Shown one piece after another: positions 33,367 through 45,869 of a stretch of DNA of 64,000 bases. The notes below the pieces were generated by a model. The model had not been told where the DNA came from and searched no databases. It saw nothing but the letters and a program-made list of their open reading frames with translations. Location of the stretch: assembly GCF_900452395.1 (NCBI RefSeq), contig NZ_UGNV01000001.1, positions 1,079,501 to 1,143,500 on the forward strand, written 5' to 3'. Within the stretch, counting starts at the first letter, position 1. Every line of letters begins with the position of its first letter. The position numbers and the translations under genes were made by a program. The DNA is from Legionella beliardensis (lineage in GTDB: Bacteria > Pseudomonadota > Gammaproteobacteria > Legionellales > Legionellaceae).

Positions 33367-33673
33367 TATATATCATTGTCAATAAAAGGCGAAATTATAG
33401 CAAGCGTAGATACTATCTTAAAATAAATTAATATGTCGCATCAGCCCGAATTCTGAAGAATCCTACCAGCACAAATTAGGGTGCATAGGTTGGTTCTCGG
33501 TCCAACATAATTACCTATCATTTCTCAAAACTTTGATTGCCTGCTTAAGCAAGTTAGTTTGTTCATAATTACATTATATTCAACAAAAATGAACGATAAT
33601 TCATTAGACAATAAATAATCGGGTAAAAAACATAAAAAGGCTACCAGTATCTTTTAAGCCTATTAAAATCAAC

Positions 33674-33733
33674 TGGGACATTTGGGACAAGCGGAGCATT
33701 CGCATAAAAACAGGCTAAAACCTGTCCCATTTT
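33674..33733. repeat. TGGGACA iteron block 1
   Basis: Two direct TGGGACA copies 9 bp apart and one inverted copy about 40 bp on. The whole 60-bp block is repeated with small changes at 34318-34378, and further copies occur at 34391-34406 and 36820-36906. They flank the AlpA/DUF927 replication module and look like replication iterons or regulator sites. Confidence 0.65.
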
Positions 33734-33791
33734 TTAAAATACTCATTAATACAACTAGGACAATACATGGCGAAAAGCATTCTTTCACTAT

Positions 33792-33847: not shown

Positions 33848-34102
33848 TTATTCGTTCTCATTTAATTTAAACGAAGCAAGCAAATCTGCATGGCCTGTTT
33901 CTGCAGATAATCCCTTAATCAGATCAACTTCTTTAAATGGAAAGTGATTTCTCTTTTTTGCTTTAACGACAGTGAAGCCCTTTTCAGTAATTTCTACGTC
34001 AACTTCAGTTCCTTCTTTAAATTGAGGTATTTCACGCATTGGACCACTGATACGTAAAGCTAAGCTATTACCCCATTTTTGAATTTTCGTATGTATTTTC
34101 AT
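33848..34102 (-). CDS. Orphan MazE/AbrB-family antitoxin
   Basis: The 84-residue protein begins MKIHTKIQKWGNSLALRI, the swapped-hairpin AbrB fold of MazE/PemI antitoxins, and ends with an acidic tail of the kind that wraps the toxin. The start at 34102 fits the family best. The expected MazF/PemK toxin gene is missing on either side; downstream there is only the 28-bp palindrome. A degenerate copy of the C-terminal half lies at 54438-54596. It may neutralise a toxin encoded elsewhere. Confidence 0.8.
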   Translation of the reverse strand: MKIHTKIQKWGNSLALRISGPMREIPQFKEGTEVDVEITEKGFTVVKAKKRNHFPFKEVDLIKGLSAETGHADLLASFKLNENE

Positions 34103-34690
34103 TTTGTGCACGATATGTCATTCAGTTTTGTAACTAATTATAATATTTATGTAATAACTAATAGAAATGTTTCAAGCTCTTCCTGCAATTATTAAATAAT
34201 TTCTTTGGTCTGATCGATGCCTATACTGCCATACAATGAAAACGCTATTAAATGTAGGTTCTAACAGTTGATGAGCTTTAGTGAACTTAGGCAATTTCAT
34301 AATATTCATAAAAAACACTGGGACATTTGGGACAAGCGGGACACTCATATAAACACAGGTAAACACTGTCCCATTTTAAAAAATATCGGCTGGGACAAAT
34401 GGGACAATTCACCTTAAGAAAAAATTTTCACTATCAAACAGTATCAAATAAGCACATTTAAGATCACCAATTTTAAAGTGCTTGACTCTTATTATCCTCT
34501 AAAGTAATAATCTCTACGGACTTTGAGAAAGCCTTAATTAACGTTAATAATTAAGCTTTTAGGATAATATCAAAGAATCCCCAGTCTCTTTTACCGCATT
34601 TAAGCAGATAAAGAGTCAACTGGTTTTCAAACAGCATGGACGCTGGTGGACGGCATTAAGCTGATTGATCATCATTTGACGAGGTTATCC
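34103..34690. other. Non-coding stretch with second iteron block, candidate origin
   Basis: No gene is supported. The stretch between mazE and the AlpA-like gene contains the second TGGGACA block and is otherwise AT-rich (34410-34600). An AT-rich region next to iterons upstream of a primase-like gene is the layout of a replication origin; this is inference. Confidence 0.45.
34318..34406. repeat. TGGGACA iteron block 2
   Basis: TGGGACA lies at 34319, 34328 and, in the form CGGGACA, near 34336, all on the plus strand at 9-base spacing. An inverted copy follows at 34368 and two more direct copies at 34391 and 34400. The first 60 bp duplicate block 1. Confidence 0.65.
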
Positions 34691-34966
34691 ATGTCTAATA
34701 CTAAACTTTCTCGTTTACAACTTTTAAACGAATTTGAATCTGCACCACATTCTTCTTTATTTAATCAACAAACCTTAGCTGCTGTTTTAAGTTGCTCTAC
34801 TCAACTTTTAGAACGCAATCGTTGGGCAGGCACTGGCATTCCCTATCTTAAAATTGGCCGCAAGGTTTTATATCGCAAAAGTGATGTTTTGGCATTTCTA
34901 GAGCAGCAACGAGTCTATTGTTCAACTAGCGATGAAGGGCGAAGCCTAGCGCTGGTTAACGGATAA
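34691..34966 (+). CDS. AlpA-like helix-turn-helix regulator of element 2
   Basis: The 91-residue protein has a HTH_17/AlpA-type domain (TLAAVLSCSTQLLERNRWAGTGIPYLKIGRKVLYRKSDVLAFLEQQ). The ATG at 34691 has GAGG seven bases upstream. It directly precedes the DUF927 gene, an arrangement common in P4-like satellites and small integrative elements. It may regulate replication, excision or the TGGGACA sites. Confidence 0.78.
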   Translation: MSNTKLSRLQLLNEFESAPHSSLFNQQTLAAVLSCSTQLLERNRWAGTGIPYLKIGRKVLYRKSDVLAFLEQQRVYCSTSDEGRSLALVNG

Positions 34967-35000
34967 AATCAATAAAAATAGATTTCTGTTCAAGAAGGGG

Positions 35001-36803
35001 ATGATGTCTACGGAAATTGTGCCTTTCATGAACGCTGTTGGAGAAAGAGTCATGAGTCAAAATCAAATTATTAATATCAAAAATAAAGCGGGTAGCTCCT
35101 CTGTCATTTGTGAGTACGCTGGTGGTCACTTTAAGTTAACGGAAAAGGGTATCTCTTTTCTTGGCAATGATAAAGATGGTAACCCAATGGCACCACGCTG
35201 GATTTGTTCACCGCTCTATGTCATCGCTAAAACTCGTGATGCTAAAAGTGGTGAGTGGGGGCGTTTATTAGAGTGGCAAGATGACGATGGCATTATCCAT
35301 CAATGGGCAATGCCGTTATCACTACTGCAAGGGGATTCCTCTGAAGTGAGACGAGAGTTAGCTAATCTTGGCTTATCTATCTCACCAAATAAAATTGCTC
35401 GGGATTTGCTAGCTACCTATCTACAAGTGTTTCCGGTGGAGGCGAGGGCACGTTGCGTTGATAAATTGGGTTGGCATGGTGAAACCTTTATCACGGCATC
35501 GCAAGCAATAGGTAATTCGTCAGAAAGAATTGTTTTTCAAAATACCAATGCCATTGAATCTGCCTTGTCTGTATCAGGTAGCGTTGAGGATTGGCGAGAC
35601 ACTATTGGTGCGCTCTCTGCTGGAAACTCACGCCTGGTTTTTGCTATTTCAGCGGCCTTCGCACCAACATTAACAACCATTGCCGGTGAAGATTCGGGTG
35701 GGTTTCATTTTCGAGGTGCTTCTTCATGTGGTAAGAGTACTGCTTTAAAAGTCGCCGCTTCAGTTTGGGGCAATCCACAGGCTTATTGCCGTTTATAGCG
35801 CAGCACTGCGAATGGCCTTGAAGGATTAGCTGCACTTCATAATGATGGGTTGTTAATTTTGGACGAATTAAGCCAAATGGATCCCAAAGAAGCAGGGGAG
35901 GCGGCTTATTTACTGGCTAATGGTCAAGGAAAAACAAGAGCCACTCGGCAGGGAATAGCAAAGCCCGCGTCTCGTTGGTCACTGTTTTTTCTCTCAGCTG
36001 GTGAAGAATCTCTCATGTCTTTAATGGCGAGAATCGGACAGCGAACTAACGTTGGGCAGGAAATTCGGTTAGCTGATATTGAAGCAGATGCTGGTTTTCA
36101 TATGGGTATTTTTGAAAATATTCATAATCAACTAAGCCCCGCTACAATGGCGCTATCCTTAAAGGAATATTCCGGCAAGTATTACGGCGCAGTTGGCCTG
36201 GAATGGTTAAAAAAAGTAGTCGCTAATCGCCAGGCTATTGCCAGTAAGATAAATGGTTTAATACAGGAATTTATAAACAAGCTTGCTATAGCAAATGCGA
36301 CTGGTCAGATTATACGCGTAGCACGACGTTTTGCTTTAGTGGCCATTGCCGGTGAATTGGCTAGTCATTATGGATTAACAGGTTGGGAAAAAGGCGAATC
36401 ATTTTCTGCAGCGCAAAAATGCTTTAACGTTTGGTTAGACGCGTTTGGCAGCGAAGGGAATCGGGAAGATAGAGCAATACTCGCTCAAGTACGGGCCTTT
36501 TTTGAATCACATGGCGCCAGCCGCTTTGATAATGTAAGAACGCCTAATAATGAACGCGTTTTAAATCGTGCTGGCTTTTATTCAACTGACGATGAAGGCT
36601 ATCGGGTTTATATGGTTTTAACGGAAGTCTTTAAAAAAGAGTTGTGCCTTGGCTTTGAGCCTAGAATAGTTGTTCGAGTATTGATGAATGAAGGCTGGTT
36701 AAGACCTGCAGCCGATGGACTGCCTACCCATAAACCAAGGATTAGAGGAGTGGGAACGCCCAGAGTCTATAAATTCACTGATAAAATCTGGGGTGGTGAG
36801 TAA
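35001..36803 (+). pseudogene. DUF927 primase/helicase-like gene with in-frame amber stop
   Basis: Reading through one TAG at 35796-35798 gives a single frame of 600 codons that matches DUF927 proteins along its length. The first half includes Walker A GASSCGKST (about residue 250); the second has GLLILDELSQMDPKEAG as Walker B and a conserved SAGEESL segment. In the family the residue at the stop is usually tryptophan (W-R-x-T-x-N-x-L-E-G), so TGG to TAG is the simplest change. The gene would normally replicate the element. Without a suppressor it yields a truncated protein that separates the two ATP-binding motifs. Confidence 0.82.
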
Positions 36804-36819
36804 ATTATTAAATAAAAGA

Positions 36820-36906
36820 TTGTCCCATAAATTTTAACTGATGGGACAATATGGGACAGCGTGAATCCAGTACTAATGCGCTGTCCCAAGTGTCCCAGTT
36901 GTCCCA
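36820..36906. repeat. TGGGACA iteron block 3, overlapping a coding end
   Basis: Copies of TGGGACA in both orientations occur at 36820, 36842, 36852, 36882, 36891 and 36900, spaced mostly 9-10 bp apart. The last three lie within the final codons of the minus-strand recombinase-like gene, where they encode its GTTGTLGT tail. Confidence 0.65.
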
Positions 36907-37724
36907 GCCGATTTTACATCCTTAAGATATAACCATAACGTATTACGCGATTTTATTCCCATTTCATATTGTATCAATAAGCAAGTTTTATAGTTACCAT
37001 GCTCCGCCAGCAAGCTTGCATACATTTGTTGCGCATACAAATGGCGCCAGCTTTTAGCGCTCGATAGGCGATGTTTGGCTAGAGCGCTGCGCCATCTTAA
37101 GCGGATTTCTTCATAGGGTATTATTTTTATGAGGCTATCTCGTCTACCAGTTAACTGATTAAAAAAGTTTACAAGTAAGCGTTGATTTGTTGTTCGATAA
37201 GGGATATGACGGTCGCTCGAGTTAAACGCAATATCTCTGGTAATCCAAAAATGATCATCTTGAACCTGGATGTGCGGTTTTATTGTAATGGCTTCTCGAA
37301 AGGTTAACCCAAACTCAGTTTGCAATGCCATAATGATTCGAGCGTATGGATCAGTGATTGATTTCCAAATATCTGCTTTAACATGTAACTTACGCTTTTT
37401 GCGTTTAATAGGACGTATTAAGTTAAGCGATTTGTTATCAATATTGCCAACAGGACACTCACATAGAGCCAAGAAACGGCGAATGATGGTCATATAGCGC
37501 ATGATTGTCACGGGATTAATCTTGCGCTTTTTCCAATAAGAAACTAGTTCGGTAATATGTTGCGTGTTTAGGGCTTGCCAGGTAGGTGGTACTTGCCGAA
37601 TAGCAAATAAATCATCAATCATTTTATGAATAACATAAGCACGATGCTTGCGATAAAGGTACTTACCTTGCCTGTCAAATTTTATTTGTTGATTAGCGAA
37701 TTGTCTCAATGATTGTGTACGCAT
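36873..37724 (-). CDS. Tyrosine-recombinase-like protein (Integrase_1/PF12835 type)
   Basis: The 283-residue protein resembles the phage-integrase-like family PF12834/PF12835. An N-terminal core-binding domain (about 1-120) is followed by a catalytic domain with GLTFREAIT (Arg), WRHLYAQQMY (His) and RNTLWLYL (Tyr). It is a second recombinase within element 2, separate from the terminal integrase, with AGGTGA as ribosome site. A hammerhead ribozyme lies about 330 bases upstream in the same transcript direction. Its C-terminal residues are encoded by iterons. It may act in resolution or excision. Confidence 0.68.
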   Translation of the reverse strand: MRTQSLRQFANQQIKFDRQGKYLYRKHRAYVIHKMIDDLFAIRQVPPTWQALNTQHITELVSYWKKRKINPVTIMRYMTIIRRFLALCECPVGNIDNKSLNLIRPIKRKKRKLHVKADIWKSITDPYARIIMALQTEFGLTFREAITIKPHIQVQDDHFWITRDIAFNSSDRHIPYRTTNQRLLVNFFNQLTGRRDSLIKIIPYEEIRLRWRSALAKHRLSSAKSWRHLYAQQMYASLLAEHGNYKTCLLIQYEMGIKSRNTLWLYLKDVKSAGTTGTLGTAH

Positions 37725-38008
37725 AGTTCACCTGCGAAAGTATTTTAAATAAATGTTTGCCCTGAGTGCTGTTTAGTGTTGGTCGAGCAGCTCACTCGCT
37801 AGTGAAACTCGGCAAAGCCGTAAAGCTCGAAGTAGGGGGCAAAGCAATCGTTATGAGGCAAACGATATGGCCATAACTAAGTTTTTTGGTGGTTTTTCTC
37901 CTATTAATGTAGTTGAGTAGATTAGATAAAACGAAAGAGTTTTATCCGCCATCCATTTCATATTGAACAATGATTTAGCTCTATCGAACGACAGAGTTCC
38001 TTAAAGGT

Positions 38009-38054
38009 TTCCCGACTAAACGTCTAACCATGAAATTAGGGAATAAGCATGGTT
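38009..38054 (-). ncRNA. Conserved hairpin and possible pseudoknot 3' of ribozyme A
   Basis: On the minus strand AACCATG pairs with CATGGTT (7 bp) and the loop holds TTCCCTAATTT. A conserved ACGTTTAGTCGGGAA follows, whose GGGAA can pair with TTCCC in the loop. The same layout with compensating changes occurs at 45355-45398, so it is probably a structured RNA. Confidence 0.55.
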
Positions 38055-38057
38055 TTA

Positions 38058-38109
38058 GTATAAGACGCCTAAACGTTTCGCCGGATTTCCACCGGCTCAT
38101 CAGTCATAC
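38058..38109 (-). ncRNA. Type I hammerhead ribozyme (A)
   Basis: The minus strand reads, 5' to 3': GTATGA (stem I), CTGATGA core, GCCGG-TGGAAAT-CCGGC (stem II), GAA core, ACGT-TTAG-GCGT (stem III), C at the cleavage site, and TTATAC closing stem I with six pairs including one G-U. Every invariant core base is present (C3, U4, G5, A6, G8, A9, G12, A13, A14, A15.1-U16.1, C17). Predicted cleavage is between 38064 and 38063. It is a type I form open at stem I, located between the FRG gene and the recombinase-like gene and in their direction. Confidence 0.85.
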
Positions 38110-38242
38110 TTCATTTAGAAAAGTAGCAAAGTGCAGATCTTGAAACAAGGGGTTTCACAGGGATTTTTGTCCTATCTTATTTGGTGCGTTAGTACAGAAG
38201 GCTTTCTAGGGCAGGTAGCAATTGGGTAGTTAATGGAAAAAT

Positions 38243-38278
38243 TTCTGCGTCACTGCAGAAAATTGCAGTGACGCAGAA
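38243..38278. terminator. Perfect 15-bp hairpin downstream of the FRG gene
   Basis: TTCTGCGTCACTGCA pairs completely with TGCAGTGACGCAGAA around a GAAAAT loop. It lies about 90 bases past the stop of the minus-strand FRG gene and may terminate it. No clear T-run follows on that strand, so another role is possible. Confidence 0.5.
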
Positions 38279-45354: not shown

Positions 45355-45398
45355 TTCCCGACTAAACGTTCTGCCATAAATTAGGGAAGAAGATGGCA
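45355..45398 (-). ncRNA. Conserved hairpin and possible pseudoknot 3' of ribozyme B
   Basis: The minus strand has TGCCAT pairing with ATGGCA, a loop with TTCCCTAATTT, then ACGTTTAGTCGGGAA, whose GGGAA can pair with TTCCC. Stem bases differ from the copy at 38009-38054 but pairing is kept, while loop and tail are conserved. Confidence 0.55.
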
Positions 45399-45402
45399 TT
45401 AT

Positions 45403-45455
45403 CACAAGACTAGGAAACCTAGTTTCACCAGAATTTCACTGGCTTATCAGCTGTG
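45403..45455 (-). ncRNA. Hammerhead-like ribozyme (B), core variant
   Basis: The minus strand reads CACAG, CTGATAA, GCCAG-TGAAATT-CTGGT (stem II), GAA, ACTAGG-TTT-CCTAGT (stem III, six perfect pairs), C, TTGTG (stem I, five pairs). The order and spacing match ribozyme A. The core has A in place of invariant G8, and stem II closes with G-U, so activity is probably low or lost. Predicted cleavage would be between 45408 and 45407. It lies in the leader of the small-gene/ssb/ardA unit. Confidence 0.68.
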
Positions 45456-45869
45456 TCAATTTCATTCTAACAAGCAAAAAAAGAAAAGCAATGGGGGTGT
45501 TCTGGTTGTACCTAAATATACCTATTTGATACTCAAAATTTTTTAAAAGCTCTAGCCAAGGTAACTTTTATATGCTGAAAAACATAAAGTGTATTGTGGT
45601 TAGTTAGTACTTATGTGCAGTACGTTTAGATTTAAGTTTTTACAAGGACTTAATCAGAAATTACTGCACATAATATCCATACTTTCCACTAGACAATCAT
45701 AGTAGCTGCAGGTATTTTAATGAGAGAGATAGTTATAGAGCAAGATACTTATAAAAATAAGGATAGAATTTTGACGAATTAAGTCATGATTTATGCCAAA
45801 TCCAGAATTGCAATGCTATGCGATATTACTTTAATCTTAATATGGAAGTTAGTAAAACTATTAGGAAAA

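What the first reader, a model, noticed from the sequence alone, without database searches (positions are those of the whole stretch)
38058..38109. Type I hammerhead ribozyme between FRG and recombinase genes
The minus strand contains every invariant hammerhead core base in the right order (CTGATGA, GAA, cleavable C) with three helices of 6, 5 and 4 pairs. It is type I (open at stem I). It lies in a mobile element about 330 bases before a recombinase-like gene in the same direction. Hammerheads near integrase genes of prophages have been described, but their role is unknown. Here cleavage would separate the upstream FRG message from the recombinase leader.
Basis: partly seen in the sequence, partly recalled or inferred. 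Interest (0 to 1): 0.88.

Follow-up and report, generated by a model that had tools for sequence, protein, structure and literature searches.

The report
Self-cutting RNA at a message's start
A small self-cutting RNA (a hammerhead ribozyme) appears to begin the message of a recombinase-like gene on a Legionella mobile element, followed at once by a folded knot, much as engineers build synthetic gene insulators, which suggests a testable job for a kind of ribozyme whose role in bacteria is unknown.

Summary
Window 38054-38115 (-) is a type I hammerhead with stems of 6, 5 and 4 pairs and predicted cleavage after 38064. It scores below Rfam's cut-offs, but comparison settles it. A model built from 16 copies finds it in 84 of 143 genomes of the order and in only the window's own of 299 sampled across the phylum. 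All three stems covary. In 102 of 103 distinct copies the core varies only at the free position N7.

The proposed role, separating an FRG message from the recombinase leader, is not supported. FRG was found before this copy alone of 103, and a terminator-like palindrome at the element's left edge lies between.

In 94 of 103 copies an extended -10 promoter ends 13-16 nt before the core (controls 0.2%), so transcription should begin at the ribozyme's 5' edge. Just after the cut lies a covarying hairpin with a probable pseudoknot, whose 3' part is Rfam RAGATH-32.

Best reading: a natural counterpart of the synthetic insulator RiboJ, giving messages a fixed, structured 5'-hydroxyl end. Structure and placement are well supported. 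Cleavage, start site and function are inferred. Hammerheads before Legionella ardA were already in print.

The parts
38243..38278 (-). Palindrome at the left edge of the element (TTCTGCGTCACTGC-loop-GCAGTGACGCAGAA), terminator-like on the minus strand
   Evidence: Homology among copies begins here; exact matches in the own genome only at four element copies; terminator-like scan hit (2 found, 0.6 expected).
38143..38148 (-). Predicted -35 hexamer TTGTTT
   Evidence: TTG at 16-18 nt from an extended -10 in 94 of 103 copies; letters checked.
38120..38128 (-). Predicted extended -10 TGC-TACTTT; predicted transcription start about 38112-38115
   Evidence: Family conservation, letters. The general consensus scan did not list it. 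Start site inferred.
38054..38115 (-). Type I hammerhead ribozyme; predicted cleavage after C17 at 38064, product starts at 38063
38009..38053 (-). Hairpin P1 (38048-38053 with 38027-38032) and probable loop pseudoknot P2 (UUCCC 38039-38043 with GGGAA 38009-38013) just after the cleavage site
   Evidence: 5 of 5 P1 pairs and 1 of 2 P2 pairs tested change on both sides in 61 distinct rows; 5 standard pairs (G-U counted, best offset) in 94 of 99 parsed copies.
37971..38031 (-). RAGATH-32 (RF02922), overlapping the 3' part of the hairpin/pseudoknot
   Evidence: 49.6 bits, gathering 41.8.
37755..37848 (-). RAGATH-13 (RF02688), directly before the recombinase-like gene
   Evidence: 91.2 bits, gathering 80.
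36873..37724 (-). Rec1: tyrosine-recombinase-fold protein, 283 aa, lacking Arg-I, Lys, His-II and His-III
34646..36803 (+). Other genes of the element: HTH_17 and DUF927 (two ORFs), convergent to rec1
   Evidence: Pfam; shared with the nearest relatives; same set on a free plasmid.
45398..45461 (-). Second hammerhead-like copy, core CUGAUAA (G8 replaced), followed by the same kind of hairpin; before short ORF, ssb and ardA
   Evidence: 44.6 bits with R1; sequence. ssb and ardA named by eye from the translations.

Best explanation
A promoter-proximal hammerhead works as a 5'-end processing module, like a natural RiboJ. RNA polymerase starts at the 5' edge of the ribozyme (inferred from the conserved promoter). 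After about 60-70 nt the RNA folds and cuts itself after C17 (predicted). The roughly 50-nt fragment with the triphosphate end leaves, and the message of rec1 (or ssb/ardA) keeps a 5'-hydroxyl end followed a few nucleotides later by the P1/P2 fold. This gives every transcript, including any read-through from the insertion site, the same structured 5' end, and should shield it from decay that depends on a 5' phosphate (RppH/RNase E; recalled knowledge). Shown by comparison: the ribozyme fold, promoter placement and hairpin. Inferred: cleavage, start site, stability and insulation.
For: Stem covariation and free N7. Extended -10 plus TTG -35 in 94 of 103 distinct copies, the -10 ending 13-16 nt before C3 in all 94; the same test passes in 0.23% of 5,150 shuffles and 0.20% of 2,042 downstream positions. 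It passes in 77 of 78 copies before rec1, 10 of 16 before ssb/ardA and 7 of 9 with no gene recognised. P1/P2 just after the cut: 6 of 7 pairs change on both sides. RiboJ is an sTRSV-derived ribozyme plus a 23-nt hairpin at the promoter junction, and raised transcript about 2-fold and protein 2-10-fold in E. coli (PMC6206723, abstract and passages).
Against: No RNA data: neither cleavage nor the start site is shown. Rfam's hammerhead models score below cut-off. The window's -35 and -10 (TTGTTT, TACTTT) are far from consensus, and a generic scan misses them while finding two other sites, no more than chance. Copies are related by descent, so 94 of 103 are not 94 independent events. The placement is looser before ssb/ardA (6 of 16 fail). 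P2 has only one pair with a change on both sides in the aligned test. The window's second copy has lost G8. The RiboJ paper itself leaves open whether its gain comes from stability or translation (passages).
Confidence: 0.6

Rival explanations
1. The ribozyme processes long read-through transcripts, separating an upstream message from the recombinase message.
For: PMC3088659 (passages) proposes processing of long phage transcripts. The nearest upstream ORF of at least 80 aa points the same way in 45 of 87 flanks of 1 kb or more (22 opposite, 20 none).
Against: The upstream gene is not conserved: FRG in 1 of 103. Terminator-like palindrome in between in the window. A conserved promoter directly before the ribozyme.
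Confidence: 0.15
2. The leader (ribozyme, RAGATH-32, RAGATH-13) is a functional non-coding RNA of the element, for example a recombination or replication cofactor, and the ribozyme only trims its 5' end.
For: The about 560-nt leader is conserved between species. L002 keeps palindrome, ribozyme, RAGATH-32 and RAGATH-13 with no recombinase in the 1.5 kb that follow.
Against: In 78 of 103 copies rec1 is the next gene found, and in 16 others ssb/ardA, these without the RAGATH-13 motif. L002 may simply be a deletion remnant.
Confidence: 0.15
3. A single-strand DNA promoter of a leading region, active on plasmid entry, with the conserved folds serving in DNA rather than RNA.
For: Part of the copies precede ssb and ardA, typical leading-region genes (recalled).
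Against: Predicted DNA pairing of the -10/-35 hexamers is no higher than in the rest of the upstream region on either strand (0.46 against 0.49; 0.42 against 0.45; 35 of 103 copies). Free N7 with an otherwise fixed core is the signature of a ribozyme.
Confidence: 0.06
4. A relic: the ribozyme is inherited passively with the element and does nothing now.
For: The window's second copy has lost G8.
Against: 102 of 103 cores are intact while stems and loops diverge.
Confidence: 0.04

Closest known systems
Bacterial type I hammerhead ribozymes near integrases and ardA (Perreault et al. 2011, PMC3088659; passages read)
   Same: Same ribozyme class; same neighbourhood (integrases, ardA); that paper names ardA immediately downstream of a hammerhead in three strains of Legionella.
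   Different: The passages read do not mention a promoter directly before the ribozyme, the hairpin after it, or this recombinase-like family; 'leader' and 'transcription start' do not occur in its main text. Its supplement was not seen.
RiboJ, synthetic ribozyme insulator (PMC6206723, PMC7536230; passages read)
   Same: Hammerhead (so called in PMC7536230) at the junction of promoter and leader, with a hairpin kept at the new 5' end.
   Different: RiboJ is man-made from a plant satellite RNA. Here the module is natural, the post-cleavage structure has a probable pseudoknot, and no effect on expression has been measured.
RAGATH-32 (RF02922) and RAGATH-13 (RF02688)
   Same: Both reach their gathering scores here, in the order hammerhead, RAGATH-32, RAGATH-13, gene.
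   Different: RF02922 starts at 38031, inside the 3' arm of P1; its structure line shows neither P1 nor the pseudoknot (alignment).
Recombinase-fold repressors SroF/YopR of SPbeta-like phages

Membership tests
Hammerhead ribozyme, type I | Core CUGANGA, GAA and cleavable C17 in order | tested here: met
   Window sequence; CUGANGA in 102 of 103 copies; loose pattern for GAAA and UC17 in 103 of 103.
Hammerhead ribozyme, type I | Three helices around the core | tested here: met
   Covariation in all three stems.
Hammerhead ribozyme, type I | Open at stem I, stems II and III closed by loops | tested here: met
   Sequence topology.
Hammerhead ribozyme, type I | Tertiary contact between stem I and loop II | not tested
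   No prediction of this contact was made.
Hammerhead ribozyme, type I | Self-cleavage in Mg2+ | not testable with these tools
   Needs a bench assay; referred.
RAGATH-32 (RF02922) | Rfam gathering score | tested here: met
   49.6 against 41.8 bits.
RAGATH-13 (RF02688) | Rfam gathering score | tested here: met
   91.2 against 80 bits.
RiboJ-like insulator (works like) | Ribozyme at the junction of promoter and leader | tested here: met
   By sequence in 94 of 103 copies, 10 of 16 before ssb/ardA; the start site itself is not mapped.
RiboJ-like insulator (works like) | Hairpin at the new 5' end after cleavage | tested here: met
   P1.
RiboJ-like insulator (works like) | Context-independent or raised expression | not testable with these tools
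   No expression data.
Tyrosine recombinase (Rec1) | Tyrosine-recombinase fold | tested here: met
   AlphaFold model pLDDT 87.3, pTM 0.61; XerA, P2 and lambda integrase among the best matches; integrase N-terminal Pfam domain above cut-off in 2 of 3 relatives scanned, not in the window protein.
Tyrosine recombinase (Rec1) | Catalytic Arg-I, Lys, His-II, Arg-II, His-III, Tyr (motif recalled) | tested here: not met
   Arg-I is Thr in 17 of 17. In the window protein Lys, His-II and His-III align to Phe, Lys and Ile; Arg-II and Tyr are kept (His-III and Tyr lie beyond the computed alignment and were placed by eye). Not filed as an active recombinase.

The most novel reading that the evidence does not exclude
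Nature uses the RiboJ design: mobile elements throughout Legionellaceae start key messages with a hammerhead fused to the promoter, turning triphosphate-ended transcripts into 5'-hydroxyl, pseudoknot-headed messages, so that expression is insulated from insertion site and host 5'-end decay. This would give bacterial hammerheads a general function.
Probability: 0.45. Interest if true: 0.82.

Novelty: new variant of a known kind. Interest (0 to 1): 0.62.

Why it matters
The role of hammerheads in bacteria has been open since hundreds were reported, many near integrase genes (PMC3088659). A placement found in 94 of 103 copies, with the predicted start at the ribozyme and a folded 5' end after it, turns that question into a simple mapping test and suggests that the insulator built by synthetic biologists had a natural precedent. 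It also shows that Rfam's hammerhead models, at their cut-offs, list none of the copies scanned (window and 23 loci) of a family present in 84 of 143 genomes of the order, and that RAGATH-32 is the 3' part of a larger fold tied to the ribozyme.

Tried and rejected
Rfam gathering scan for a hammerhead: none in the window, in 18 loci or in 5 further loci. RF00163 in the own genome at a lax limit: two matches below cut-off, one of them on the plasmid copy of this family, the window copy not listed; 13 of 14 control genomes also ring at that limit. Single-sequence folding is not informative.

Palindrome as a lox-like recombination site: rejected for now, because the spacer varies in length, related copies (L008, L011, L013) keep the same spacer with different flanks, and no second half-site with at most one mismatch exists in the window. 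A clean right end of the element was not settled. The right-end repeat occurs 3 times in the own genome.

Single-strand promoter test: no signal. Ribozyme outside Legionella near related integrases: model R1 finds it in 0 of 7 plasmid loci from other genera and in the one Legionella plasmid (16 records matched, I fetched 8; L151 has only about 430 nt before its gene). Rec1 protein in phages: no match. PDB sequence profile: no match.

Rows: one search used 128 rows (27, 8 of 16, 35, 35 of 59, 23); 25 were identical, leaving 103 distinct. Of the 24 rows not entered, 22 are genome positions already entered (L104 judged so by identical coordinates) and two (L098, L101) are identical in sequence to one entered. 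The 103 are part of the family: one search lists more matches than I fetched, and its list is itself cut. Searches used stricter filters that lose weak matches. Four of 103 could not be parsed for P1/P2. One search picks the best offset and so favours pairing, on a fixed alignment that misplaces some rows, is the fairer count. The 16 Rec1 sequences besides the window's were chosen by hand.

Print searches: (and 86, 90 for RiboJ). They cover open-licence PMC only; the original RAGATH papers did not appear in the search for that word and were not read, so novelty against them is not checked.

Full report
What is there. The minus strand at 38054-38115 holds a complete type I hammerhead: stem I GUAUGA/UUAUAC, core CUGAUGA, stem II GCCGG/CCGGC, GAA, stem III ACGU/GCGU and C17 at 38064. 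By itself the sequence would not convince: its fold is unremarkable (z -1.5) and Rfam lists no hammerhead at its gathering scores. With relaxed limits only RF00008 appears here, at 23.6 of 48.5 bits. RF00163 reaches no cut-off in the genome; its best match, 20.7 bits, lies on the plasmid copy of the same family.

Is it more than chance? The downstream protein has 14 loci in genome contigs: 12 in named or uncultured Legionella, one in a Legionellaceae MAG, and one partial match in a gammaproteobacterial MAG. The DNA directly upstream carries the motif in 12 of the 13 full matches; the thirteenth, L017, has it elsewhere, before ssb. Sixteen copies give 14 distinct rows with 100% of cells paired and 8 of 15 pairs changed on both sides; no shuffle of 500 reaches either, and slid controls pair 24-42%. 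A covariance model from these copies finds copies not used to build it at 37-91 bits. It matches 84 of 143 genomes of the order, and of 299 genomes sampled across the phylum only the window's own. Over 103 distinct copies the core is CUGAUGA 79, CUGAAGA 12, CUGACGA 10, CUGAGGA 1 and CUGAUAA 1. Variation at N7 alone is what the hammerhead consensus allows (recalled). The one exception is the window's own second copy, at 45398-45461.

Neighbourhood. Rfam finds RAGATH-32 at 37971-38031 and RAGATH-13 at 37755-37848 on the same strand. In 78 of 103 copies the first gene recognised downstream is the recombinase-like rec1; in 13 it is ssb, in 3 ardA, and in 9 none of these was found in the stretch held. 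The ardA setting was already in print: Perreault et al. 2011 say that ardA lies immediately downstream of a hammerhead in three strains of Legionella, and that many bacterial hammerheads are near integrase genes (PMC3088659, passages).

The element. Homology between copies starts abruptly at the palindrome 38243-38278; flanks further upstream are mostly unrelated, two copies of one genome, L035 and L039, being the exception. In the nearest relatives it runs through rec1 and the convergent DUF927 and HTH genes; others share only the leader and rec1. In Legionella fallonii the set ribozyme, RAGATH-32, RAGATH-13, rec1, DUF927, HTH sits on a 14.6-kb circular plasmid, so this kind of element also exists free. 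Other copies carry a second recombinase, with the canonical residues, directly after rec1.

Where transcription starts. In 94 of 103 copies there is an extended -10 (TG-n-TA...) with a TTG -35 at 16-18 nt (17 in 81, 16 in 12, 18 in 1), and in all 94 the -10 ends 13-16 nt before C3. The same test passes in 0.23% of 5,150 shuffles and 0.20% of 2,042 downstream positions. It passes in 77 of 78 rec1 copies, 10 of 16 ssb/ardA copies and 7 of 9 others. Counting about 7 nt from the -10, the first transcribed base lies at the 5' edge of stem I. In the window the hexamers are TTGTTT and TACTTT, too weak for the generic scan, which found only two other sites, no more than chance. The start site is therefore an inference from conservation, and copies share descent.

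What follows the cut. A few nucleotides after C17 begins hairpin P1 (38048-38053 with 38027-38032 here), whose loop can pair with GGGAA at 38009-38013. In 61 distinct rows 93.9% of cells pair (shuffles 89.2%, none of 500 as high), 6 of 7 pairs change on both sides, and slid controls pair 19-53%. A freer parse that takes the best offset finds five P1 pairs in 94 of 99 copies. RF02922 starts inside the 3' arm of P1, so the Rfam model covers only the 3' part of this structure.

Mechanism. Promoter, hammerhead at +1, then a hairpin kept at the new 5' end is the layout of the synthetic insulator RiboJ: an sTRSV ribozyme plus a 23-nt hairpin at the promoter junction, which raised transcript about twofold and protein two- to tenfold in E. 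coli (PMC6206723, abstract and passages; PMC7536230, passages). Its authors suggest stability through the terminal hairpin, and do not exclude translation. I take the natural module to do the same: cut off the triphosphate end, leave a uniform, structured 5'-hydroxyl end, and so standardise and probably stabilise the message whatever DNA the element lands in. Protection from RppH/RNase E is recalled knowledge, not tested here.

FRG was found upstream in 1 of 103 copies (flanks of 1-1.5 kb in 87, shorter in 16), it lies outside the conserved element, a terminator-like palindrome stands between, and the promoter is beyond that. The ribozyme would still cut read-through RNA, and 45 of 87 longer flanks do have their nearest ORF in the same direction, so insulation from the flank may be part of the function. 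A single-strand DNA promoter was tested simply and not supported. A trans-acting leader RNA stays possible, because L002 keeps the whole leader without the gene.

Verdict. Observation confirmed; interpretation partly supported. The ribozymes are new members of a known class. The promoter-fused arrangement with the hairpin/pseudoknot is, as far as the papers searched show, a new variant. The original RAGATH papers were not available to check.

Noticed in passing
window 45398-45461 (-): Second hammerhead-like copy before short ORF, ssb and ardA; G8 is A, so probably dead, while the hairpin after it is intact.
   Followed up: partly
window 36873-37724 (-): Recombinase-fold protein lacking four of six catalytic residues in a family where a canonical recombinase often follows in tandem; possibly a regulator or partner subunit.
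   Followed up: partly
window 33664-33741 and 34309-34385: The element's right-end repeat (TGTCCC-rich) occurs twice, with a MazE-like antitoxin ORF (33848-34111, family assigned by eye) between, as if cargo were added at a duplicated end.
   Followed up: no
L035 and L039: Two elements about 180 kb apart in one genome share the left flank up to inside the palindrome loop and then diverge, as if recombination had occurred in the loop.
   Followed up: no
L149 (NZ_LN614829.1): Free 14.6-kb plasmid with the same gene and RNA set as the window's element.
   Followed up: partly
L151, L156: Leaders of related integrase genes in Shewanella and Pleionea plasmids carry an AACACTAAAC-like motif as in RAGATH-13 (seen by eye), without a hammerhead.
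   Followed up: no
window 37971-38031 (-): The Rfam RAGATH-32 model begins inside the 3' arm of a conserved hairpin and omits a probable loop pseudoknot.
   Followed up: partly
L118 5477-8734: Three ORFs in a row (335, 331, 420 aa) that look by eye like a recombinase-in-trio element, inserted after the tandem recombinases.
   Followed up: no
window 37891-37910 (-): A conserved AGGAG ribosome-binding-like motif in the leader with no ATG at the usual distance.
   Followed up: no
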